Positions 1 to 23,208 of a stretch of DNA of 34,377 bases are shown piece after piece; the stretch's first letter is position 1; each line of letters starts with the position of its first letter. The DNA comes from Burkholderia sp. Ac-20379 (GTDB lineage Bacteria > Pseudomonadota > Gammaproteobacteria > Burkholderiales > Burkholderiaceae). Where the stretch lies: NCBI RefSeq assembly GCF_017104645.1, contig NZ_JAAGPF010000049.1:1-34377 (forward strand), in the 5' to 3' direction. The notes under the pieces are model-generated. The model did not search any database. It was not told where the DNA came from and was given only the letters and a program-made list of their open reading frames with translations. The position numbers and the translations under genes are program-made.

Positions 1-576
1 TAGGCGGCCGAGCCGGTCCGCCTCGGCCGCCTGCGCCTCGTTGGCGGCCGCCGCCGCGTTGCGGCGCAGGCCGCCGGCCAGGTCGATCTCCCAGCTCGCC
101 GCCGCGCCGAGCGTGTACTCGCGCTGGCTGCGGCTGTAGCCCGGGAACGTCTTCGCGAGCGAGCCGGTGGGGCTCAGTTCGCTCTGGTGCTGGTCGCTCG
201 CCGAGCCGTCGAGATCGACGGTCGGCAGCAGCTCGGCGCCGGCCGCGGACGCGGCGGCGCGCGCCTGCCGCACCCGCGCGAACGCGGCGGCCAGATCGAG
301 GTTCTGCGCCAGCGCGCGATCGACGATCGACACCAGCACCGGATCGTGGAAGCCCGTCCACCAGGTGTCGAGCGCGGCGGCCGAGGCCGACGCCGACGTC
401 GCGCCGGCCGCCGGCTGCTTCGGCGCATGTTCGAACGGCACCAGCGTATCGACCGGCGCGCGGTAATCGGGGCCAACCGCGCAGCCGGCCAGCGCGAACA
501 GCAGCGCGGCGGCGGCAGCGAACGCCGGCACGCGCGGCGGGCGCACCGCCTGCCAGGGTTTCGACGGCGACATCAT
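1..576 (-). CDS. RND efflux outer-membrane lipoprotein, NodT family (3' end outside window)
   Basis: Outer-membrane channel of a tripartite drug efflux system; only the N-terminal ~192 residues are in the window. The start ATG at 576 overlaps the pump stop codon in an ATGA arrangement, so translation is probably coupled. A signal peptide with an Ala/Leu-rich core ends in a lipobox LAGC (Cys at residue ~32), followed by AVGPDYRAP, the usual start of mature NodT/OprM-type proteins. Further on, TWWTGFHDP and LDLAAAFARVRQARA are typical of the first OEP repeat, with its long periplasmic helices. A second ATG follows directly at 573 in the same frame. Family identity is clear; the pump and adaptor upstream support the role. 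Substrate is unknown. Confidence 0.9.
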   Translation of the reverse strand, partial: MMSPSKPWQAVRPPRVPAFAAAAALLFALAGCAVGPDYRAPVDTLVPFEHAPKQPAAGATSASASAAALDTWWTGFHDPVLVSIVDRALAQNLDLAAAFARVRQARAAASAAGAELLPTVDLDGSASDQHQSELSPTGSLAKTFPGYSRSQREYTLGAAASWEIDLAGGLRRNAAAAANEAQAAEADRLGRL

Positions 577-3500
577 GCTTCCTCCTTGCGACCGAGCCAT
601 GCTTCCTTCTTCTTTTGACCGAAGCGGCGGATGAACACGTAGAACGCGGGCGTGAACAGCAGGCCGAAGCCCGTCACGCCGAGCATCCCGAACAGCACCG
701 CGGTGCCGAGCGATTGCCGCATCTCCGCGCCCGCGCCGGTGGCCACCGCCAGCGGCGCGACGCCGAGAATGAACGCGAACGAGGTCATCAGGATCGGACG
801 CAGACGCGTGCGCGCCGCATGCACGGCCGCGCCGGCCGCGTCGGATCCTTCGTCCTCCTTCTGCCGGGCGAACTCGACGATCAGGATCGCGTTCTTGGCC
901 GCCAGCCCCACCAGCACCACGAAGCCGATCTGCGCGAGGATGTCGATCGGCATGCCGCGCATCGACAGCCCCGTGACCGATGCCAGAATGCACATCGGCA
1001 CGATCAGCACGATCGCCAGCGGCAGCTTCCAGCTTTCGTACTGCGCCACCAGCACGAGGAACACGAACAGCGCGGCCGCGCCGAACACCACCAGCGTGGG
1101 CGTGCCCTTTTGCTGCTGCTGATAGGCCAGATCGGTCCATTCGAACGCGATGCCCTGCGGCAGCACGTCGTGCGCCAGTTCCTCCATGCGATGCAGTGCG
1201 GTGCCGGTGGCCACTCCCGGTGCGGCCGCGCCCTGCACTTCGGCGGCCGGATACAGGTTGAAGCGCGGCACGCGATACGGGATCGTGCGGTCCTCGAACG
1301 TCGCGACCGAGCCGATCGGCACCATCTCGCCGGCCTGGTTGCGGGTCTTGAGGCGCGCGATGTCCTCGCCGCTGTGGCGGAAGCTGCCGTCGGCCTGCAC
1401 GATCACTTCGTAGGTGCGACCGAGGTAGTTGAAGTCGTTCACGTACTGCGAGCCGAGATAGACCTGCAGCGTCGAGAACACGTCGGTGGGCGTGATGCCG
1501 AGCTTCTGCGCCTTGACGCGATCGATGTCGGCGAACACCGACGGCGACCCCGCGTTGTACAGCGTGAACACGCCGGCGAAGTGCGGATCCTTGTTGGCCG
1601 CCGCCACCAGCGATTTGGCCGCCTTCACGAGCGCATCCGGCCCGAGGCCCGCGCGATCCTCCAGCATCATCTTGAAACCGCCCGCGCTGCCGAGGCCCTG
1701 CACCGGCGGCGGCGGGATCGTCAATACGTAGGCATCCTTGATGACCGACAGGCGCTTGCGCAGGTCGGCCAGCACGGAGCCGGCGGTGACGCCCGGCAGC
1801 GAGTGGTTGTAGAGCGACGGCAGGCCGGTGAACACCGTGCCCGAGTTCGAGGCGACCGTCAGCGTGGTCGCGTCGAGCCCGACGAACGGCGCGGCGTGCT
1901 CGATGCCCTTGGTGGCGAGCGCGATGTCCGTCACCTGCCGCACCACCTTCTCGGTGCGTTCGAGCGAAGCGCCCGGCGGCAACTGGATCACCGTGATCAG
2001 ATAGCCCTGGTCCTGCTCCGGAATGAAGCCGGTGGGCGTGCGCGAGAACTCCACGCCGGCCACCGCGATCAGCGCGACGTAGATCGCGAGCATCACCGTC
2101 AGCCCGCGCACCAGCCGCCGCGTGAGGTTGCCGTAGCCGAACGAGAGCCGGTCGAAGCCGCGGTTGAAGCGCGCGAAACCGGCTTCGATCCACTGCGAGA
2201 CGCGGCCCTTCGGCGCGGCCTCGTGGCCGGGCTGATGCGACTTGAACAGCACCGCGCACAGCGCCGGACTCAGCGTCAGCGAGACGAAGCACGAGATCAC
2301 GGTGGAGGCCGCGATGGTCACCGCGAACTGCCGGAAGAACAGCCCCGAGATGCCGCTCAGGAACGCCGACGGCACGAACACCGCGCACAGCGTCAGCGCG
2401 ATCGACAGCAGCGCGCCGCCGACCTCATCCATGGTGCGGTGCGCGGCTTCCACGGCCGACATGCCCGCGCGCATGTTGCGCTCGACGTTCTCGACCACCA
2501 CGATCGCGTCGTCCACCACGATCCCCACCGCCAGCACCAGCCCGAACAGCGAGAGGTTGTTCAGCGAGATGCCGAACGTCGCGAGCACGATGAACGAGCC
2601 GAGCAGCGACACCGGAATCGCCACCACCGGAATGATGGTCGCGCGCCAGTTCTGCAGGAACACGAACACCACGCCCACCACCAGCAGGATCGCGACGAAG
2701 ATCGTCGTGATCACCTCGTCCACCGATTTGCCGATGAAGATGGTCGGGTCGTAGATGATCTGGTAATCGACGCCGGCCGGGAATGCCTTCTTGAGCCCTT
2801 CCATCGCGCCGAGCACCTCGTGCTCGACGGCCAGCGAGTTCGCGCCCGGTTCGGCGTAGATCAGCATCGCGGTCGCGTCGTCGCGATCCTTGAACGAGGT
2901 CGCGCCGTAGTCGGCCGCGCCCACCTCCACGCGCCCGATGTCGCGCAGGTGCGTGACGCGCCCCTGCGGGTCGGACTTCAGCACGATGTCGCCGAACTGC
3001 TCGGGCGTGGCGAGCCGGCCCAGCGCCTCGACGTTGATCTGATAGGCGCTGCCGCTCGCCACCGGCGGCTGATTCAGGATACCGGCCGACACCTGCACGT
3101 TCTGCGCGCGCAGCGCGGCCAGCACCTCGCTCGCGGTCAGATCGTGCGCGGCGGCGCGGTCGGGATCGATCCAGATCCGCATCGCGTATTCGCGCGCGCC
3201 CTGGATCTGCACGTCGCCCACGCCCTGCAGCCGCGCGAGCGCGTCCTTCACGTGCAGCGTCGCGTAGTTCGACAGATACAGCGTGTCGTGCGAGTGGTTC
3301 GGCGAATACAGGTGCACCGCCAGCAGGATGCTCGGCGTGGACTTGCGCACCTGCACGCCGAGCCGCTGCACGTCCTCGGGCAGGCGCGGCAGCGCGTCCT
3401 GCACGCGGTTCTGCGTCAGCATCTGCGCGACGTTCAGATCGGTGCCGATGCGGAACGTGACGGTGACCGTGAGCTGGCCGTTGCCGGTGGACTGGCTGCT

Positions 3501-3740
3501 CATGTAGAGCATGTTCTCGACGCCGTTGATCTGCTGCTCGAGCGGCGTCGCCACGGTGCGCGCGATCGTGTCGGCCGACGCGCCGGGGTACAAGGTCGTG
3601 ACCTGCACCGTGGGCGGCACGATCTCCGGATACTGCGCGACCGGCAGCACGAACATCGCGCCGAGCCCGATCAGCGTCAGGAACGCGCTGACCACCGTCG
3701 CGAAGCGCGGGCGGTCGATGAAGAAATGGGCGATTCGCAT
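573..3740 (-). CDS. RND multidrug efflux pump, inner-membrane permease (MexF/BpeF-like, HAE1 family)
   Basis: Proton-driven inner-membrane transporter of 1055 residues, the normal length for the HAE1 family. Visible hallmarks: N-terminal FFIDRPRFA before TM1, QYPEIVPPTV at the start of the first periplasmic domain, NGVENMLYMSS (residues ~72-82), and the TM4 motif GIVVDDAIVVVEN with Asp410 and Asp411, equivalent to the proton-relay Asp407/408 of AcrB. A second large periplasmic loop follows TM7 (about residues 560-870). Wording of the first 350 residues is closer to remembered MexF/BpeF sequences than to AcrB/AmrB; that is an impression, not a computed result. The gene lies 12 bp downstream of the adaptor and overlaps the outer-membrane gene by 4 bp, forming one operon. 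Substrates cannot be read from sequence. Confidence 0.95.
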   Translation of the reverse strand: MRIAHFFIDRPRFATVVSAFLTLIGLGAMFVLPVAQYPEIVPPTVQVTTLYPGASADTIARTVATPLEQQINGVENMLYMSSQSTGNGQLTVTVTFRIGTDLNVAQMLTQNRVQDALPRLPEDVQRLGVQVRKSTPSILLAVHLYSPNHSHDTLYLSNYATLHVKDALARLQGVGDVQIQGAREYAMRIWIDPDRAAAHDLTASEVLAALRAQNVQVSAGILNQPPVASGSAYQINVEALGRLATPEQFGDIVLKSDPQGRVTHLRDIGRVEVGAADYGATSFKDRDDATAMLIYAEPGANSLAVEHEVLGAMEGLKKAFPAGVDYQIIYDPTIFIGKSVDEVITTIFVAILLVVGVVFVFLQNWRATIIPVVAIPVSLLGSFIVLATFGISLNNLSLFGLVLAVGIVVDDAIVVVENVERNMRAGMSAVEAAHRTMDEVGGALLSIALTLCAVFVPSAFLSGISGLFFRQFAVTIAASTVISCFVSLTLSPALCAVLFKSHQPGHEAAPKGRVSQWIEAGFARFNRGFDRLSFGYGNLTRRLVRGLTVMLAIYVALIAVAGVEFSRTPTGFIPEQDQGYLITVIQLPPGASLERTEKVVRQVTDIALATKGIEHAAPFVGLDATTLTVASNSGTVFTGLPSLYNHSLPGVTAGSVLADLRKRLSVIKDAYVLTIPPPPVQGLGSAGGFKMMLEDRAGLGPDALVKAAKSLVAAANKDPHFAGVFTLYNAGSPSVFADIDRVKAQKLGITPTDVFSTLQVYLGSQYVNDFNYLGRTYEVIVQADGSFRHSGEDIARLKTRNQAGEMVPIGSVATFEDRTIPYRVPRFNLYPAAEVQGAAAPGVATGTALHRMEELAHDVLPQGIAFEWTDLAYQQQQKGTPTLVVFGAAALFVFLVLVAQYESWKLPLAIVLIVPMCILASVTGLSMRGMPIDILAQIGFVVLVGLAAKNAILIVEFARQKEDEGSDAAGAAVHAARTRLRPILMTSFAFILGVAPLAVATGAGAEMRQSLGTAVLFGMLGVTGFGLLFTPAFYVFIRRFGQKKKEAWLGRKEEA

Positions 3741-3752
3741 GGCCTCGCCTCC

Positions 3753-4994
3753 TTATTGCGGCTGCGCCGCATATTGGATCGCGCCGTCGTGCGGCTTCAC
3801 CTTCGAACCGGGCGCGGCGAACGGCAGGCCGTCGATGATCACGCGATCGCTGTCGGTCAGGCCCGAGCGGATCACGCGCAGGCCGCCGCGCAGGTCGCCC
3901 GTCTCGACCTGCTTGGGTACCACCGTGCCGTCGGCGGCCACGGTCAGCACCAGATGCTCGGACTGGTTCGGCAGCACGGACGCGTCGGGCACCAGCAGCG
4001 TGGGCGCCGGATGCGCGACGGCCACCCGCACGCGCGAGAACTCGCCGGGCGTGAAATGGCCGTCGGCGTTCGGCACCGTGGCGCGCGCGTGAATCGTGCC
4101 GCTCGAGCGGTCGATCGCGTTGTCGACGAAATCGAGCGTGCCCTGGCGGTCGTAGTTCGTGGAGCCGCCCGAGGCCAGCTCCACGCGGTCGGCCGGCAGG
4201 CCGGCCACGTTGCCGCGATAGCGCTGGAACGCTTCGTAGTCCGATTCGCTCATGTCGAAATCGAGGTAGATCGGATCGAGCGAGACGATCGTGGTCAGCA
4301 GCGTGGTGGGGCTGGCCGCATAGCGGCTGCCGGCGATCAGGTTGCCGACCGACACCTGATGGCGGCCGATGCGGCCCGTAAACGGCGCGACGATGCGGCA
4401 GTGGTCGAGGTCGAAGCGCGCGTCGCGCACCTGCGCGTCGGCGTCGTCGAGCGCGGCCTGCGCGGCGTGCAGCTCGGAGGTGCGCTGCTCGGTGTTCTGC
4501 TGCGTGCCGGCCTCGGCGCTCTGCAGTTGCTGCGCGCGCGTCAGCTCCTGTTTGGCCAGCACCAGCCGCGCGGCGGCCGTCTGCTGCTGCGCCTTGGCCT
4601 GCGTGTAGCGGATTTCGTAAGGCACCGAATCGATCGTGAACAGCAGATCGCCCTTGTGGACCACCGCGCCGTCGCGGAAGTGGATGCCGGTCAGCGTGCC
4701 GCCCACCTGCGCGCGCAGCTCCACCTGATCGACCGCCGAGAACTGGCCGAGAAAGCCGAGCCGCGTGTCGAGATCGCGCACCAGCGGCCGGCTGACCGTC
4801 ACCTCGTGCGGCGGCATCGGCGCGGCGCTCGCCGTGCCCGCGCCGCCCTGCTGCGCGTGATGGAACCACAACCCGCCGCCGATCACCACGATCGCGGCCG
4901 CGATCGCCACGGCCCGCGCGCGCCCCTTCGGCCCGCCGTTGCGGCCGCCGTCCACGTGCGCGCCGTCTTCGTCCAGTCTTGTCTTCGTATCCAC
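3753..4994 (-). CDS. RND efflux periplasmic adaptor (membrane fusion protein)
   Basis: Adaptor linking the pump to the outer-membrane channel. After a short basic N-terminus there is one membrane anchor (VAIAAAIVVIGGGLWF), then the barrel-sandwich half motif QVELRAQVGGTLTGIHFRDG, a coiled-coil hairpin rich in Gln/Ala, and the second lipoyl half with APFTGRIGRHQVSVGNLI. I place the start at GTG 4994 (413 residues), preceded by CAGGGTGAAGCA, rather than the upstream in-frame ATG at 5111. That ATG lies inside an operator palindrome, about 5 nt from the predicted transcript start, and the 39 extra residues look unlike any adaptor N-terminus. First gene of the efflux operon, 12 bp before the pump. 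No Cys lipobox is visible, so it is probably anchored by the helix. Confidence 0.9.
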   Translation of the reverse strand: MDTKTRLDEDGAHVDGGRNGGPKGRARAVAIAAAIVVIGGGLWFHHAQQGGAGTASAAPMPPHEVTVSRPLVRDLDTRLGFLGQFSAVDQVELRAQVGGTLTGIHFRDGAVVHKGDLLFTIDSVPYEIRYTQAKAQQQTAAARLVLAKQELTRAQQLQSAEAGTQQNTEQRTSELHAAQAALDDADAQVRDARFDLDHCRIVAPFTGRIGRHQVSVGNLIAGSRYAASPTTLLTTIVSLDPIYLDFDMSESDYEAFQRYRGNVAGLPADRVELASGGSTNYDRQGTLDFVDNAIDRSSGTIHARATVPNADGHFTPGEFSRVRVAVAHPAPTLLVPDASVLPNQSEHLVLTVAADGTVVPKQVETGDLRGGLRVIRSGLTDSDRVIIDGLPFAAPGSKVKPHDGAIQYAAQPQ

Positions 4995-5093
4995 TGCTTC
5001 ACCCTGGAAAGCGTTGCGCCCGGCATCGTGCGCAGCGCGAACGAACCGGGCGATGTCGGCGCCGCGTAACCCCACCCGGCGGCCGGCCTCATT

Positions 5094-5143
5094 TTGGATG
5101 TCTATCGACATCCAAGTTGCGTTAGATTACATGCAACATCCAA
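5094..5143. promoter_or_regulatory. Repressor-type operator cluster upstream of the efflux operon
   Basis: A perfect 9-bp inverted repeat, TTGGATGTC (5094-5102) and GACATCCAA (5107-5115) with a 4-bp spacer, lies just downstream of the predicted -10. A third half-site, ACATCCAA at 5136-5143, repeats 5108-5115 exactly 28 bp away and sits in the promoter spacer. A further inverted pair GTTGC/GCAAC (5116-5120, 5133-5137) flanks the -10. The arrangement is typical of TetR-family repression of RND operons, but no regulator gene is adjacent in this window, so the binding protein is unknown. Confidence 0.6.
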
Positions 5144-5151
5144 ATGATCAA
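5124..5151 (-). promoter_or_regulatory. Candidate sigma-70 promoter of the efflux operon
   Basis: On the minus strand TTGATC (plus coordinates 5146-5151) is separated by 16 bp from TAATCT (5124-5129). Transcription would begin near 5117, giving a leader of about 120 nt to the GTG start at 4994. It is embedded in the inverted/direct repeats described separately. Prediction by eye only. Confidence 0.5.
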
Positions 5152-5421
5152 GCGCGCCGAAATGACGAAACGCAGCGCCGGATCGCGGGAATCGGGGCAA
5201 ACCCTTGCCGGGCGGGGATCTGGGGGATTGTTCTAGGCTGTCGGCTACTGAATTCAGGCGCGACGCACAGCGGGTTTCGAGTAAAAAATCTGGAATCCGA
5301 AAGGAAAATGGAAGCTTGTCGCGGCGTGCGGGCCGGCGAAACATCTTATGAATTTAATTTTCGTCGCGTACAGTGTGGCCCGGCTTCCCGGAACCGCCGC
5401 TCCACTCCACGCTGAACATCG
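5152..5421. other. Divergent intergenic region, rest of the efflux/MFS spacer
   Basis: No gene is supported here. A weak plus-strand promoter candidate for the MFS gene is TTATGA (5346-5351), 17 bp, TACAGT (5369-5374). The stretch 5275-5360 is noticeably richer in A/T than its surroundings. No clear Shine-Dalgarno sequence precedes the ATG at 5422. Confidence 0.3.
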
Positions 5422-16034: not shown

Positions 16035-17195
16035 ATGAACACTTCCCACCCGCTCGCGCCGCAAGCCTCGAACGATCGCATCCAGTGGATCCGGATCGCC
16101 TCGACGTTCCTGCCGCTCGCCAACCCGATCAGCGACGCGAAGGTGCTGACCGGCCGCCAGAAGCCGATGACCGAAATCGCGATCCTGTTCGTCGAGATCG
16201 AGACGGCCGACGGCCATCGCGGCCTCGGCTTCAGCTACTCGAAGCGCGCCGGCGGCCCCGGCCAGTTCGCGCACGCGAAGGAAATCGCGCCGGTGCTGCT
16301 CGAGGAGGATCCGAACGACATCGCGCGGCTGTGGGACAAGCTCGCCTGGGCCGGCGCCTCGGTGGGCCGCAGCGGGATGGCCGCGCAGGCGATCGGCGCG
16401 TTCGACGTGGCGCTGTGGGACCTGAAGGCGAAGCGCGCGAACCTGTCGCTCGCCAAGCTGCTCGGCGCGCAACGCGATTCGGTGCGCTGCTACAACACCT
16501 CGGGCGGCTTCCTGCACACGCCGCTCGACCAGTTGCTCGTCAACACCGAGATCTCGCGCGAGAAAGGCATCGGCGGCATCAAGCTGAAGGTGGGCCAGCC
16601 CGACTGCGCGCTCGACATCCATCGCGTGTCCACCGTGCGCAAGCATCTCGGCGACACGTTCCCGCTGATGGTCGACGCGAACCAGCAATGGGATCGCCCG
16701 ACCGCGCAGCGCATGTGCCGCACGTTCGAGCAGTTCAACCTGATCTGGATCGAGGAGCCGCTCGACTGCTACGACGCCGAGGGCCACGCCGCGCTGGCCG
16801 CGCAGTTCGACACGCCGATCGCCACCGGCGAGATGCTGACGAGCGTGTCCGAGCACTGGGAATTCATCCGCCAGCGCGGCGCCGATTACCTGATGCCCGA
16901 TGCGCCGCGCGTGGGCGGCATCACGCCGTTCCTCAAGGTGGCCACGCTGGCCGAGCACGCCGGCATGATGCTCGCGCCGCACTTCGCGATGGAGCTGCAC
17001 GTGCATCTGGCGGCGGCCTACTCGCGCGAGCCGTGGGTCGAGCACTTCGAGTGGCTGGAGCCGCTGTTCAACGAGAAGCTCGAGACGCGCGACGGCCGGA
17101 TGATCGTGCCGACCCGGCCGGGGCTGGGGCTGTCGCTGAGCGAGCGGGTGGCGGGATGGACGGCGCAGGAGGTCGAGTTCGGGCAGCGGGGGTAA
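16035..17195 (+). CDS. L-talarate/galactarate dehydratase (enolase superfamily)
   Basis: Dehydrates galactarate (and probably L-talarate, with epimerisation) to 5-keto-4-deoxyglucarate in the cytoplasm, Mg2+ dependent. The 386-residue sequence matches remembered Salmonella TalrD/GalrD closely: SDAKVLTGRQKPMTE, FSYSKRAGG, ASVGRSGMA, YNTSGGFLHTPLDQ and HFEWLEPLFNE. Catalytic features align with a constant offset of 12: KxK with Lys183 and Lys185 (IKLKVGQ), metal ligands Asp214 (DANQQWD), Glu240 (IEEPLD) and Glu266 (TGEMLTS), and His316 (APHFAME). Start ATG 16035 has AAGGA 7 bp upstream. It is transcribed separately from the preceding operon through its own pair of LacI-type operators. Next pathway steps (aldolase or dehydratase) are not in the window. 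Confidence 0.93.
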   Translation: MNTSHPLAPQASNDRIQWIRIASTFLPLANPISDAKVLTGRQKPMTEIAILFVEIETADGHRGLGFSYSKRAGGPGQFAHAKEIAPVLLEEDPNDIARLWDKLAWAGASVGRSGMAAQAIGAFDVALWDLKAKRANLSLAKLLGAQRDSVRCYNTSGGFLHTPLDQLLVNTEISREKGIGGIKLKVGQPDCALDIHRVSTVRKHLGDTFPLMVDANQQWDRPTAQRMCRTFEQFNLIWIEEPLDCYDAEGHAALAAQFDTPIATGEMLTSVSEHWEFIRQRGADYLMPDAPRVGGITPFLKVATLAEHAGMMLAPHFAMELHVHLAAAYSREPWVEHFEWLEPLFNEKLETRDGRMIVPTRPGLGLSLSERVAGWTAQEVEFGQRG

Positions 17196-17226
17196 CCGGG
17201 CTTGCGGCCACCGGCCCGGCCGCCGC

Positions 17227-17250
17227 GCGCCCCCGAAGCCGGGGGCGCGG
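17227..17250. terminator. Strong hairpin between convergent genes
   Basis: Perfect 10-bp stem CGCGCCCCCG/CGGGGGCGCG (17227-17236, 17241-17250) with loop AAGC, located 31 bp after the dehydratase stop and 7 bp after the rhomboid stop on the other strand. There is no U-tract; probably a bidirectional transcription barrier. Confidence 0.55.
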
Positions 17251-17257
17251 GCATGGC

Positions 17258-19216
17258 TTATTGCGCGTCGCTGTCGGGATCCGCGGTCGAGTCGGCCTTC
17301 GGCATCGATACCGGACACAGAAAGCGCTTGTCGCCATCGGCATGGTCCGGTTCCATGAACCTGTTCATGTCGTAGGCGGTCAGGACGCCGTGGGCTCGCG
17401 GCATCCCGCTCGTCAGCGCGTAGAGCATCGTGTCGTTGCGGCCGAACACGACGTGCTCCGCGCCGAAGCCGGCCCGATACGCGCGCATCGCATGTCGCGT
17501 GGCGGCCTTCACGAGGTCGAGCGCGCCGCCGTTCTCGACCACGAGCCACGCGCCGTCCGCGCTCGTGGCCCGCACCCGCATCCGATCGTCGCAGATGTCG
17601 TACGCCTGCTCGACGCGCAGCGTGCGCGGATCCGCCCAGGCCATGCCCGCCACGCTGTGCAGCCAGACGCCGCGCCCCGACGACGCCGGCAGCGCCGCCG
17701 TGTAGACGTGTTCGGGATCGCCCCGCTCGCCCGTCGGATGATCGGCGATCCGATGCCGATCCCCCGTATCGAACTCGGACACTGCGTTCTTGCCGTAAGG
17801 CATCGCGAACAGGCGCGTGCCGTCGGCCGACAGCCACATGCTCAGATCGCGGAACTGGCCCCCGCGCGTGAATTGCGAATCGAGTTCCACCGGCTCGTCG
17901 TCGAACTTCAGCGTGGCCGTCACCGCCGGCCAATGCGCCAGATCGAGCACCGAGATCGTGTCGTCCCAATCGTTGAAGACGTAGAGCGTATCGCCCGACG
18001 ACGACAGCATCAGCTTGCGCGGATAGCTGCCCACCTTGACCGAATCGAGCAGCTTGCCGCTGCGCAGGTCGATGCGCGACACGCTGTCCTTCTGCATCGA
18101 CGCCACGTAGGCGGTCTGCTCGTCCGGGCTCACCGCCACGCCGTTGGCGCCGCGGCCGGGACAGAAATCGTAGCCATCGTTGAGGTAGCAGTCGTCGGTG
18201 TGCTTGATGGCGGCGCCCCGGACGGTGCGGGTGACCGTCATCGTGGCCAGGTCGACCACGCGCAGGCTGTTGTCGCCGAGATCCGTCACGTAGGCCCGCG
18301 CGCCGGAGCGGCCGATCGCGACATTGCTCGGGTACGGGCCCAGTTCCACGTCCGTGCCGCCAGCGTCCCTGGGGTCGATCGGCGCGGGCTGGCTGCGCAG
18401 GTCCGCCTGCACCTGCTGATCGAGCGCATGCTGCGCCTCGGCCGCGGCGCGCTCCATCGCCCGCTTGGCCTGCTCGGCCTGGATCGCATCGCGGATCTCG
18501 ACGAGTTCGGACGTCGAGCTGATCTGCGCGAAGCCGAAGAACAACGCGCCGCCGATCGCGGTCACCAGCAGGGACAGCCCGGCGGGACGCAGGCGCGCCA
18601 CCAGCGCCGCCGGCAGGCACAGCACGCAGGCGGCCAGCACGCCGGTGAGCACGCCGCCGAGGTGCGCCGCGTTGTCCACGCCGTGCGACGTCAGGCCAAA
18701 GGCGAGATTGATCACGATGACCTGCACGATCGCGCCGGTCTTGATCTGCGCCGACTCGCCCTTCGGCGGATTCATCGCCAGCACGAAGGCCGCGCCCGCG
18801 AGGCCCATCAGGGCGCCGGATGCCCCCACGCTGACGGCCGGCAGGATGTGCGGCGGCAGCCCCACCTTGTGCGCGATGTTCCAGAGCGCACTGCACAGGC
18901 CGCCGCCCAGCGCCGACAGCAGATAGATCGACGTGAAGCGCGCCGCGCCGACGAGGCGCTCGAGCACGCTGCCGAGCACCAGCAGCATGTACATGTTGAG
19001 CAGCACGTGCAGCCAGTTCGCGTGCAGGAACGCGCTGCTCAGCAGCCGCCACGATTCTCCCGTCAGCGTCAGCGGCGCGTAGTTCGCGCCCCAGGCCAGC
19101 AGCAGCGCGTTGTCGGGGCTTCGGTAGCCGGCATGAATCCAGAGCGCGAGGAAAATGACGAGATTGGCCGCGATCAGCAAGCCGGAAACCGAAAGTAGCG
19201 ATGTGGTTTTTTTCAT
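17258..19216 (-). CDS. Rhomboid intramembrane protease fused to a C-terminal beta-propeller
   Basis: 652 residues with two clear parts. Residues ~1-231 are a rhomboid: TM1 after MKKTT, Trp56-Arg57 of the L1 loop, HxxxxHxxxN with His65, His70 and Asn74 in TM2, catalytic Ser133 in SVGASGALMG, and His185 in NAAHLGGVLTG, so the Ser-His dyad is intact. A seventh membrane segment (213-231) gives a 6+1 layout that should put the C-terminus in the periplasm. A charged, helical linker (234-275) leads to a YVTN/NHL-like propeller (~285-640) with blades containing ARAYVTDLGDNSLRVVDL, TAYVASMQKDSVSRIDL and TLYVFNDWDDTISVLDL. Four Cys (343, 352, 542, 634) in the propeller are compatible with disulfides. 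Substrate unknown. No clear ribosome site at ATG 19216. Known: rhomboids cleave membrane helices; inferred: the propeller recruits substrate or ligand. Confidence 0.85.
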   Translation of the reverse strand: MKKTTSLLSVSGLLIAANLVIFLALWIHAGYRSPDNALLLAWGANYAPLTLTGESWRLLSSAFLHANWLHVLLNMYMLLVLGSVLERLVGAARFTSIYLLSALGGGLCSALWNIAHKVGLPPHILPAVSVGASGALMGLAGAAFVLAMNPPKGESAQIKTGAIVQVIVINLAFGLTSHGVDNAAHLGGVLTGVLAACVLCLPAALVARLRPAGLSLLVTAIGGALFFGFAQISSTSELVEIRDAIQAEQAKRAMERAAAEAQHALDQQVQADLRSQPAPIDPRDAGGTDVELGPYPSNVAIGRSGARAYVTDLGDNSLRVVDLATMTVTRTVRGAAIKHTDDCYLNDGYDFCPGRGANGVAVSPDEQTAYVASMQKDSVSRIDLRSGKLLDSVKVGSYPRKLMLSSSGDTLYVFNDWDDTISVLDLAHWPAVTATLKFDDEPVELDSQFTRGGQFRDLSMWLSADGTRLFAMPYGKNAVSEFDTGDRHRIADHPTGERGDPEHVYTAALPASSGRGVWLHSVAGMAWADPRTLRVEQAYDICDDRMRVRATSADGAWLVVENGGALDLVKAATRHAMRAYRAGFGAEHVVFGRNDTMLYALTSGMPRAHGVLTAYDMNRFMEPDHADGDKRFLCPVSMPKADSTADPDSDAQ

Positions 19217-19562
19217 CGAGGAACGCGAGTAGTCGAAAAGTATCGCCGCTCAGCCGGCGTGGCGAGGGATGACAAACGGCACACGGCAAACGCTGGTGCG
19301 CGGCATGCCCGGAGCCCGCCGGGCATCATGGTGCACCCGATCGCCGGCGCGATGCATAACGAAATCAAGCGGCGCAAGCGCCGAACTCGCACCGTCAGCC
19401 AAGGCCGAAGCCTCGCGTCGCCAACCGCCGGAGCGGCACCGCGTCGAGCGCGAGCATCGACACCGTCATGCGGGTCTTCTGCCATTGCCTTAAGGAAATT
19501 CGCCAGCGAGGCCGGCCGTTCGCATGGCGGCGAGGCATCCTCACCGCGCCGTCGGCGGGCGC
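19217..19562. other. Intergenic region upstream of the rhomboid fusion gene
   Basis: I see no supported gene, RNA or repeat in these 346 bases. It presumably holds the promoter of the rhomboid gene, but no -35/-10 pair on the minus strand is convincing. Confidence 0.4.
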
Positions 19563-20105
19563 TCAATTGCCGTCGACCTGATCGCAAGGATCCTCGTCCT
19601 TGCGCGGCGTGGCCAGGCGCACGCCGCCGCCCGGCTGTGTCAGCAGGCAGAAACCACCGTCGTAGGTCGGGCCGTAACTGCCGGCCGGCATGATGCCGAA
19701 GCCGTAGAACCGGTCGGCGTCGAGTGGCTTCGGCGGCGTGCGCACCGTCGCGCCGGGCAGCGTCTGCCCATAGACGATGCATTCGCCGCGCCTGAGCGTC
19801 ACCGGCGGCGCATCGTCGGGAATCCGAACGTCCCAGTAGATCACCGACGGGCTTGCCGGCCCGGTGGATCGCGAGACGCCCACGTAGCGGATCCGCACCG
19901 GATCGGCAGCGGCGTCGCTCGCGGGCAGGCAGGCCGCGGGCTTGCCGCCGATCTGCCGGATCTCGAGCGCGAGCGGCATCGTCGAGGTGGCGTGCGCGAC
20001 AGGTGCGGATGCGCAGTACGCGGCGATCAACGCCGCAACGCATCCGAACGGCGTTGTCATGATCCGATGTTGCTTATGGCGCATCGGGGTTCCGGCGAGT
20101 GTCAT
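19563..20105 (-). CDS. Secreted small protein of unknown function
   Basis: 180 residues if started at ATG 20105, only 7 bp after the stop of the upstream membrane-protein gene; an alternative ATG at 20085 (MRHKQHRIM...) also fits the signal peptide. The basic n-region, a hydrophobic core and a cleavage-like AHA|TS predict export to the periplasm. The mature part has five Cys, several Pro/Gly-rich segments, GECIVYGQ and YDGGFCLL. The pattern of an all-beta domain with a CIVYGQ-like strand recalls small periplasmic proteins that some annotators label putative T6SS immunity proteins; this is a weak impression. Organised as a two-gene unit with the upstream gene. Confidence 0.7.
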   Translation of the reverse strand: MTLAGTPMRHKQHRIMTTPFGCVAALIAAYCASAPVAHATSTMPLALEIRQIGGKPAACLPASDAAADPVRIRYVGVSRSTGPASPSVIYWDVRIPDDAPPVTLRRGECIVYGQTLPGATVRTPPKPLDADRFYGFGIMPAGSYGPTYDGGFCLLTQPGGGVRLATPRKDEDPCDQVDGN

Positions 20106-20112
20106 GGTGTTC

Positions 20113-20907
20113 TCAATCGATGCGTTCGGCGTGTTTTCGCGCAACGCGCGCGTTCGCTTCGTCGATCAGTTCCCGGATCGAATCGTAGGACGGGTTGTTG
20201 ATTCCGAGCTTCGTCTGCTTGCCCTTGCCGCGCAGATACATCCACTCCGGCCATCGGCGCATCTGGCTGAAGATGCCGACCACGAACTCGCCGCACGGCG
20301 GCACGTGCAGTTCCTCGGCCGTCTTCTCGCCCGCAAAGTAGGCGTTCGAATCCGGGCCGAACACGCGGTCTTCACAGGACTCGTGCCAGAACACCATCGG
20401 CCGGTTCGTGTCGGCCGCCGGCAAATCGTCGAAGCTGAAGCCGTCTTTCCGGTCCGACAGCGCAAAGACGCGCAAGCCGCCCTGCGCGCTCCGGATGGCG
20501 ATCTTCCAGTGCGGGTTGTCGTGCTCGTCGTAGTCCTGCCACGGGTTGATCGCCTCCGACAGCACCTCCCGGCGGCCGTCGCGCCGCGCCAGCTCGAACA
20601 CCACGGTGCTGTTCGGAAACGCCGCCGAGTGGCCGAGCGCGGGGTTGCCCTTGATGCGGAGGATCCCGTTCTCCGGCACGCGCACCTCCAGCCCGTCCTT
20701 CGTCCGCAACGGCGCGACGCCGTCCGGCTGATCGAACAGTGCGACGACCGGGCCCGCATAGTCTTCCGGGATCACGTAGATCAAGGGCATGCGCCGGATT
20801 CGGTCCACGCCGAACCCGATGGCAATGGCCAGCACGATGGCGAGCAGGATCGGGATGGGTTTGCCGATACGGCGTATCGCGGGGTTCGGCACGTTGGGGG
20901 CTTTCAT
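20113..20907 (-). CDS. Single-pass membrane protein of unknown function, DUF6843-like
   Basis: 264 residues. An N-terminal basic segment (NPAIRRIGK) precedes one membrane helix (PIPILLAIVLAIAIGFGVD), then a soluble domain predicted on the periplasmic side. It starts with PLIYVIPEDYAGPVVALFDQ, a wording that resembles the opening of DUF6843-type domains (low certainty, from memory). Later parts contain FWHESCEDRVFG and HVPPCGEFVVG with a possible Cys pair. Start ATG 20907 is preceded by GGAG, closely spaced; a GTG at 20976 would add 23 residues and is less likely. The following secreted-protein gene begins 7 bp after this stop, so they probably act together. Confidence 0.7.
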   Translation of the reverse strand: MKAPNVPNPAIRRIGKPIPILLAIVLAIAIGFGVDRIRRMPLIYVIPEDYAGPVVALFDQPDGVAPLRTKDGLEVRVPENGILRIKGNPALGHSAAFPNSTVVFELARRDGRREVLSEAINPWQDYDEHDNPHWKIAIRSAQGGLRVFALSDRKDGFSFDDLPAADTNRPMVFWHESCEDRVFGPDSNAYFAGEKTAEELHVPPCGEFVVGIFSQMRRWPEWMYLRGKGKQTKLGINNPSYDSIRELIDEANARVARKHAERID

Positions 20908-21356
20908 GAGCTCCGGCTGGGATGCTTGGACTGCTCCGGGAATGCCGGACGCCGTTGGCCTGATGCTTTGCGCCACCGCGGTATTCGCCAGGCACGTTCC
21001 TGCCGAGCGGCAATTTCAACGCCGAATTTGAGGCGCGGCATGGGTTTCAGTCCTATGCGAGGCATATCGGCGTTCTTTGATGCCCTCGAATTTCGAATAT
21101 TTGAACGTCCGCCGACACTTCGTGGTGGAGGTCGGAATAACGACTGACCTGCCTGACTCAGTTGAGCAGTATCGTTGCTTACACTCGTTGGGCGTCACGT
21201 AGGCCAGACTGCCCAAGGATTCGAATGTCCGGAGTGTCATGATCGCGATTCGAAAAATCGCCGATGGAAGGATTCTGGATGCGCTCCGGCTCGGGCGGGC
21301 GAACGATATCGCCGGGCATCGGCAAATGGGGCGACGCGCGGTTTCGCGCTACATGC
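20908..21356. other. Gene-poor spacer, possible transposase scrap
   Basis: No intact gene is supported. On the minus strand a frame at 21016-21240 contains SLAYVTPNECKQRY (about 21169-21207), which resembles the C-terminal S(S)LGYxTPxEFxxRY of IS3-type transposases, but the rest of that frame does not continue the match. Base composition is less GC-rich than in neighbouring housekeeping genes. Confidence 0.25.
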
Positions 21357-23114: not shown

Positions 23115-23208
23115 TGGCGGAGACGGAGGGATTCGAACCCTCGATCCAGGTTTTGGCCCAGATGCTCCCTTAGCAGGGGAGTGCCTTCGACCTCTCGGCC
23201 ACGTCTCC
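23115..23208 (-). tRNA. tRNA-Ser (anticodon GCU)
   Basis: A 94-nt cloverleaf with the long variable arm of class II tRNAs. Acceptor stem GGAGACG pairs with CGTCTCC, followed by G73 and an encoded CCA. The anticodon stem CTCCC/GGGAG encloses loop CTGCTAA with anticodon GCT (plus-strand 23172-23174), and the T arm contains GGTTCGAATCC. It reads AGC/AGU codons. It has its own promoter and terminator. Confidence 0.97.

What the first reader, a model, noticed from the sequence alone, without database searches (positions are those of the whole stretch)
17258..19216. Active-looking rhomboid protease fused to a periplasmic beta-propeller
The sequence shows a complete rhomboid core (Ser133/His185 dyad, WR loop, HxxxxHxxxN) followed by a seventh helix, a charged linker and a ~350-residue YVTN/NHL-like propeller with four Cys. 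A 6+1 topology would place the propeller in the periplasm above the active site. Known bacterial rhomboids usually carry small cytoplasmic domains; a large propeller suggests a substrate-recruiting or ligand-sensing module. This architecture is not one I recognise as characterised.
Basis: partly seen in the sequence, partly recalled or inferred. Interest (0 to 1): 0.7.

Follow-up and report, generated by a model that had tools for sequence, protein, structure and literature searches.

The report
Rhom7-type membrane protease with periplasmic propeller
This gene encodes a membrane-embedded protease that looks like Rhom7, a quality-control protease studied in Shigella, and its sequence suggests that the little-studied tail of such proteases is a propeller-shaped domain outside the inner membrane.

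Summary
Window 17258-19216 (minus strand) encodes 652 residues: a rhomboid core with Ser133/His185, a seventh helix, a linker and a YVTN-type beta-propeller with four Cys. The claim that no characterised family has this architecture does not hold. Its reciprocal best match among the E. coli rhomboids compared is a 625-residue protein of the same layout with Ser133/His187, the residues reported for Shigella sonnei Rhom7 (PMC7232013). Rhom7 is active on orphan respiratory subunits; its seventh helix and C-terminal domain were dispensable on an artificial substrate. That paper never says propeller. The E. coli gene matches in 3222 of 5426 complete genomes but is absent from K-12 MG1655. Four propeller Cys in 16 of 16 intact fused proteins, charges around helix 7, and stand-alone cousins with signal-peptide-like starts support a periplasmic propeller. 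Best reading: a Rhom7-type quality-control rhomboid whose propeller selects or gates clients; that last step is inference. Structure prediction did not run, so the fold rests on sequence profiles, and three of seven blades are not supported singly. The fused proteins are not one clade (AU p 0.0002); propeller losses are my preferred reason. New member of a known kind; what is added is the anatomy of the tail.

The parts
17258..19216 (-). whole gene, 652 aa plus stop: rhomboid protease + TM7 + YVTN propeller
18596..19216 (-). residues 1-207: six-helix rhomboid core
   Evidence: PF01694 residues 53-200, E 1.5e-32; hydropathy
18818..18820 (-). catalytic Ser133 codon (GASGA)
   Evidence: invariant in 15 of 15
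18662..18664 (-). catalytic His185 codon (HLGG)
   Evidence: invariant in 15 of 15
18521..18595 (-). residues 208-232: short Arg-bearing loop (probably cytoplasmic) and seventh transmembrane helix
   Evidence: hydropathy; Lys/Arg in the loop between helices 6 and 7 in 15 of 15 aligned proteins
18365..18520 (-). residues 233-284: charged linker with the nearly invariant Pro279
   Evidence: alignment A1
17297..18364 (-). residues 285-640: YVTN-type beta-propeller, probably periplasmic
   Evidence: TIGR02276 and PF10282; profile of the domain hits surface-layer YVTN protein 1l0q, E 3.9e-51
18161..18190 (-). Cys343 and Cys352, between hand-drawn blades 1 and 2; proposed disulfide
17591..17593 (-). 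Cys542; proposed partner of Cys634
   Evidence: two similarly spaced Cys remain in the shortened relative L039
17315..17317 (-). Cys634 near the C-terminus; proposed partner of Cys542

Best explanation
The gene is a Rhom7-type rhomboid: an inner-membrane serine protease that cuts single-pass membrane proteins within or next to the membrane by a Ser133/His185 dyad opening towards the periplasm. Helix 7 carries the C-terminus across the membrane, so a disulfide-held YVTN propeller sits in the periplasm close to the entry of the active site. As for Rhom7, the likeliest job is quality control of membrane complexes: cutting subunits that lack their partner. The propeller is not needed for catalysis; it most likely decides which clients reach the active site, by binding their exposed periplasmic parts or by restraining the enzyme until a client is bound. 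Shown here: the architecture by sequence, the intact catalytic residues, relatedness to the E. coli Rhom7-like protein in both halves, the conserved Cys set. Shown in print for Rhom7: activity, substrates, dispensability of the domain on one artificial substrate. Inferred: that this protein has the same kind of clients, the periplasmic side, the disulfides, and what the propeller does.
For: Best matches both ways in a small comparison set: E. coli P0002 core to this protein 38.9% over 180 residues, E 3e-34, ahead of the two other rhomboids of the window's genome (7e-21 and 0.02; the first is cut by its contig end); this protein's core to P0002 40% over 166, E 2e-32, against 6e-11 for GlpG; propeller halves E 4e-16. 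P0002 has Ser133/His187 as reported for Rhom7. Rhom7 cleaved a TatA reporter and the HybA, HybO and FdnH helices, and orphan FdnH, when expressed from a plasmid. The window's genome encodes a formate dehydrogenase beta subunit whose C-terminal hydrophobic stretch holds a proline; a proline there is reported as needed for cleavage of Rhom7 and GlpG clients, but I did not align the positions. Periplasmic side: exactly four Cys in the C-terminal domain in 15 of 15 and in L051; Lys/Arg before helix 7 in 15 of 15; seven stand-alone relatives of the propeller have starts that look like signal peptides by eye. Precedent for a regulating tail: deleting the extracellular domain of YqgP seems to raise its activity four- to sixfold.
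Against: No gene travels with it across genera: neighbours are shared within the genus loci fetched (7 of 7) but differ elsewhere. A formate dehydrogenase beta subunit is in 64 of 65 genomes of the genus, with or without the fused gene, so co-occurrence says nothing. Rhom7 at native level gave no detectable cleavage, and a review notes no obvious growth phenotype of the double mutant. The fused proteins are not one clade in the rhomboid tree (AU p 0.0002). After helix 7 one of 15 proteins (L032) is net positive by one charge. Blades 5-7 are not supported singly. Rhom7's own sequence was not compared. No structure model could be made.
Confidence: 0.6

Rival explanations
1. The propeller is a brake or lid that lowers protease activity in general rather than choosing clients, as the extracellular TPR domain of YqgP seems to do.
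For: Deleting the YqgP domain seems to have raised activity four- to sixfold on both its native and a model substrate.
Against: Rhom7 without its domain was reported only as still active on an artificial substrate; no rise is stated in the passages read. A whole propeller is large for a simple lid.
Confidence: 0.2
2. The propeller senses a small ligand, a metal or the redox state through its four Cys and switches the protease on or off.
For: Exactly four conserved Cys; [quoted passage not shown]
Against: In L039 the first two Cys of the domain are missing while two others, spaced much as the last two, remain; this fits two separate disulfides better than one four-Cys site. One case only.
Confidence: 0.1
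3. A dedicated processing enzyme with one native substrate, like rhombosortase, not general quality control.
For: TIGR03902 rhombosortase gives a sub-threshold match (45.2 bits against a cut-off of 84).
Against: The cut-off is not reached; no neighbouring gene travels with it across genera.
Confidence: 0.07
4. The propeller faces the cytoplasm.
For: No direct topology test exists for this protein or, in the passages read, for Rhom7.
Against: Seventh helix, charge bias and the conserved even number of Cys; stand-alone relatives with export-type starts.
Confidence: 0.03

Closest known systems
Rhom7 (SSON_0610) of Shigella sonnei and its E. coli counterpart (P0002, WFY01505.1)
   Same: Rhomboid core with Ser133, seventh helix, C-terminal domain; for the E. 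coli protein also a four-Cys YVTN-like propeller and best matches both ways in each half.
   Different: 25% identity overall to P0002; His at 185 instead of 187; different genomic context; a different bacterial family. Function of the window's protein untested; identity of P0002 with SSON_0610 inferred.
YqgP (GluP) of Bacillus subtilis
   Same: Rhomboid with an extracellular C-terminal domain thought likely to bind proteins or peptides.
   Different: That domain is a predicted TPR array, not a propeller, and there is an extra N-terminal cytosolic domain.
GlpG of E. coli
   Same: Rhomboid core and catalytic dyad; shares the orphan client HybA with Rhom7.
   Different: Six helices and no C-terminal propeller; GlpG model TIGR04239 scores 36.9 bits against a cut-off of 250.
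YVTN / YncE-type propellers (1l0q, 3vgz)
   Same: Propeller repeats; the profile of the domain hits 1l0q at E 3.9e-51 and YncE at E 6.7e-9.
   Different: Listed there as separate proteins, not fused to a membrane protease.

Membership tests
Active rhomboid protease (PF01694) | Rhomboid domain above the curated cut-off | tested here: met
   113.2 bits against 22.6
Active rhomboid protease (PF01694) | GxSG serine and helix-6 histidine | tested here: met
   Ser133, His185; invariant in 15 of 15
Active rhomboid protease (PF01694) | Proteolytic activity | not testable with these tools
   needs an assay
Rhom7 type | Six-helix core + seventh helix + C-terminal domain | tested here: met
   Rhom7 layout from PMC7232013
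Rhom7 type | C-terminal domain homologous to that of the E. coli counterpart, with the same four Cys | tested here: met
   E 4e-16; four Cys in 15 of 15, the first shifted in E. coli
Rhom7 type | Reciprocal best match | tested here: met
   set: the three rhomboids that PF01694 finds in the window's genome, one of them cut by its contig end, and P0002 and K-12 GlpG for E. coli; not whole proteomes
Rhom7 type | All fused proteins form one clade on the rhomboid core | tested here: not met
   55-row tree; AU p 0.0002; propeller-less L036 lies within the Burkholderiaceae fused clade and L052 beside L051
Rhom7 type | Sequence identity with SSON_0610 itself | not tested
   its sequence was not held; matched by catalytic residue numbers and layout only
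Rhom7 type | Cleavage of orphan HybA/FdnH-type subunits | not testable with these tools
   candidate client gene present; no assay
GlpG | TIGR04239 cut-off | tested here: not met
   36.9 bits against 250
Rhombosortase | TIGR03902 cut-off | tested here: not met
   45.2 bits against 84
YVTN beta-propeller | TIGR02276 cut-off | tested here: met
   65.5 bits against 27.85
YVTN beta-propeller | Folded seven-bladed propeller | tested here: inconclusive
   four blades supported singly, three not; no structure model available

The most novel reading that the evidence does not exclude
The propeller is the part that reads orphan status: it binds the partner-facing surface of a periplasmic subunit, which is hidden in an assembled complex, and hands the subunit's helix to the active site below. 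The published deletion test, made on an artificial substrate that holds only a transmembrane helix between carrier proteins, could not have seen this.
Probability: 0.25. Interest if true: 0.7.

Novelty: new member of a known kind. Interest (0 to 1): 0.4.

Why it matters
How bacterial rhomboids tell an orphan subunit from an assembled one is not settled. Identifying the tail of Rhom7-type proteases as a probable periplasmic propeller, shared by Burkholderiaceae, Providencia and E. coli, names the part to test. The E. coli gene is in 59% of the complete genomes searched (3222 of 5426) but missing from K-12 MG1655, which may explain why it drew little notice beside GlpG and gives a natural null background for tests.

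Tried and rejected
Structure prediction of the window's protein was tried and never ran, so no fold search was made. A viral-contig search gave two rhomboid-only loci with the alignment and none with the single protein. The genome-contig scan gave three Cryobacterium rhomboids without a propeller match. Searching around E. coli by locus handle was not accepted, and a class sample of 185 genomes held no match to the E. coli lnt protein at E 1e-120 or better, so the spread in Enterobacterales beyond E. coli and Providencia is not measured. A dedicated operon partner was looked for and not found across genera; an efflux pump gene pair (AcrB-type and HlyD-type by Pfam in the window) lies 12 kb from the gene in the window and about 5 to 7 kb from it in the genus loci, but at only 37-43% and about 30% identity, so I take it for members of a large family, not a conserved locus. 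Mutual exclusion of fused genes (9 of 65) and stand-alone propellers (7 of 65) in the genus, no genome with both, is within chance (P of no overlap 0.33). Co-occurrence with formate dehydrogenase beta subunits is uninformative (64 of 65). A first blade-profile step printed nothing and was rerun. A scan of 17000-21000 found no promoter-like site and 3 terminator-like ones against 1.5 (sd 1.3) in shuffles.

Full report
Observation. The ORF at 17258-19216 on the minus strand encodes 652 residues. Pfam and NCBIfam put a rhomboid domain at 53-200 (E 1.5e-32) and YVTN/lactonase-type propeller repeats in the C-terminal half (TIGR02276 E 3e-18; PF10282 above its cut-off over 79 residues). Ser133, His185, Trp56-Arg57, His65, His70 and Asn74 are in place. 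A seventh hydrophobic stretch lies at 212-230, followed by a charged linker. Cys occurs at 343, 352, 542 and 634 in the C-terminal domain.

Relatives. In the window's genus, 9 of 65 genomes examined, the window's own included, hold a full-length fused match. In a sample of 398 genomes of the family, 13 do, these 9 included; the other 4 are in two further genera. In a sample of 300 genomes of the order, the window's genome and one in another family, L051, do. In a class sample of 369, only the window's own does. In the three wider samples only three or four candidates per genome were scored, and searches listed matches at E 1e-30 or better only, so those counts are lower bounds. Outside the order, E. 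coli (L044) and Providencia alcalifaciens (L046) carry it. Over all loci then held (L001-L071), a script found 19 open frames with both halves: 16 distinct intact genes (the window's gene was fetched three times) and one E. coli copy whose frame is split, L045. Fifteen of the 16 are in alignment A1, the others being 41-46% identical to the window's protein in Burkholderiaceae, 25% in E. coli and 23% in Providencia; L051 was found later.

The link to Rhom7. E. coli P0002 has Ser133 and His187. Liu and colleagues (PMC7232013; I saw the abstract, the whole of section 6 and search passages elsewhere) report for Shigella sonnei SSON_0610, named Rhom7, potential catalytic residues Ser133 and His187, seven predicted helices and a C-terminal domain. 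They show cleavage of a TatA reporter, loss of activity in Ser133Ala and His187Ala, and activity without helix 7 and the C-terminal domain on that reporter. Their screen gave HybO, HybA and FdnH helices for Rhom7; orphan FdnH was cut by plasmid-expressed Rhom7, while native levels gave no detectable cleavage. The authors suggest that helix 7 could place the C-terminal domain in the periplasm. The words propeller, YVTN and WD40 do not occur in the text. The sequence of SSON_0610 was not held here, so P0002 = Rhom7 is an inference from residue numbers, layout and the close kinship of Shigella and E. coli (the last recalled). Best matches both ways tie the window's protein to P0002 in the core and in the propeller, within a set of three rhomboids of the window's genome and two of E. 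coli.

Presence in E. coli. 3222 of 5426 complete genomes match, 3217 over at least 80% of the gene; 3227 of 3228 places are on chromosomes. In the two records looked at, both labelled plasmids of over 1.2 Mb, the gene or its split copy lies between gltI and lnt. K-12 MG1655 has an IS5 element between those genes, and blastn finds no remnant of the gene there beyond chance-length matches.

Topology and Cys. In A1 the loop before helix 7 carries Lys/Arg in 15 of 15. The 20 residues after helix 7 are acidic or neutral on balance in 14 of 15; L032 is positive by one. Every A1 member has exactly four Cys in the C-terminal domain; L051 also has four there. Stand-alone relatives of the propeller occur in 7 of 65 genomes of the genus, with starts that look like signal peptides by eye, no predictor being used; the four Cys are at matching places in the three of the seven that I aligned. 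In L039 the C-terminal domain is shortened; the first two Cys are missing and two others, 102 residues apart against 89-95 in A1, remain. This fits two disulfides, 343-352 and 542-634, in an oxidising compartment, but rests on one case.

Tree. On the rhomboid core (55 rows; L001, L048, L045, L006, L037, L014 and L009 were left out as duplicates, near-duplicates or broken) the 14 fused proteins need four changes of label, and holding them as one clade is rejected (AU p 0.0002). The propeller-less L036 sits within the Burkholderiaceae fused clade and L052 next to L051. Repeated loss of the propeller is my preferred reading, given that the propeller halves are homologous across both orders; repeated gain is not excluded. 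Several rows, L046 and GlpG among them, have long branches, so their places are unsure.

Blades. Four blades are supported singly, three are not. The profile of the domain matches the YVTN surface-layer protein 1l0q at E 3.9e-51. No structure model could be computed.

Context. The window has a galactarate dehydratase gene next to it. The seven genus loci fetched (of eight other fused genus genomes) share a block of neighbours, including a binding protein of SBP family 3 and an ABC permease just downstream. A type VI secretion gene lies beside L051. An MFS-transporter cluster is shared by the genus loci and L082 of another genus, and an efflux pump pair by the genus loci and the window, at low identity and some kilobases away. 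No neighbour is shared by all; the rhomboid cluster is in 14 loci and the next largest in 8.

Mechanism. For YqgP, a Bacillus rhomboid with an extracellular tail, removing the tail seems to raise activity four- to sixfold (PMC7231995, section 9 read whole; other passages). Together with the Rhom7 data this makes a client-selecting or restraining role of the propeller the most likely, with quality control of membrane subunits as the job. The client step for the window's own protein is untested.

Literature. Searches: rhomboid + beta-propeller (38 papers, 25 listed, none on a bacterial rhomboid-propeller protein by title and abstract start); rhomboid + YVTN (2, unrelated by title); Rhom7 (6 papers; passages seen in all six; the word propeller was searched in five of them, not in PMC8778405, and was absent); three broader searches, of whose 117, 13 and 29 papers 20, 11 and 10 were listed; rhomboid + NHL repeat + periplasm (none); SSON_0610 (one paper). 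Within this open-access library I found no text that names the Rhom7 tail a propeller; sequence databases may already do so.

Noticed in passing
L047 (E. coli K-12 MG1655) 3749-5343: K-12 lacks the rhom7-like gene that matches in 3222 of 5426 complete E. coli genomes; an IS5 element lies in the gap between gltI and lnt.
   Followed up: partly
L072 10298-11960; L044 6572-7480: The fused gene lies next to an ABC transporter binding-protein gene of SBP family 3 in genus relatives, and next to the glutamate/aspartate binding-protein gene gltI in E. coli, in different orientations; possibly chance.
   Followed up: no
L039 943-2463: Rhomboid with a shortened C-terminal domain that lacks the first two Cys and keeps two others spaced much as the last two: a natural truncation that hints at disulfide pairing.
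   Followed up: partly
L016, L018-L023: Stand-alone relatives of the four-Cys propeller with export-type starts; in L084 the next gene encodes an NHL-repeat protein.
   Followed up: partly
window 19566-20976, minus strand: Two small genes upstream: one with a signal-peptide-like start and no Pfam match, one with a hydrophobic stretch near its start and a sub-threshold DUF6843 match.
   Followed up: no
window 23115-23208: tRNA-Ser (GCT) between the region upstream of the rhomboid gene and the aspartate kinase gene.
   Followed up: no
window 576-5111, minus strand: Efflux pump pair (AcrB-type and HlyD-type by Pfam) with distant counterparts near the fused gene in genus relatives.
   Followed up: partly
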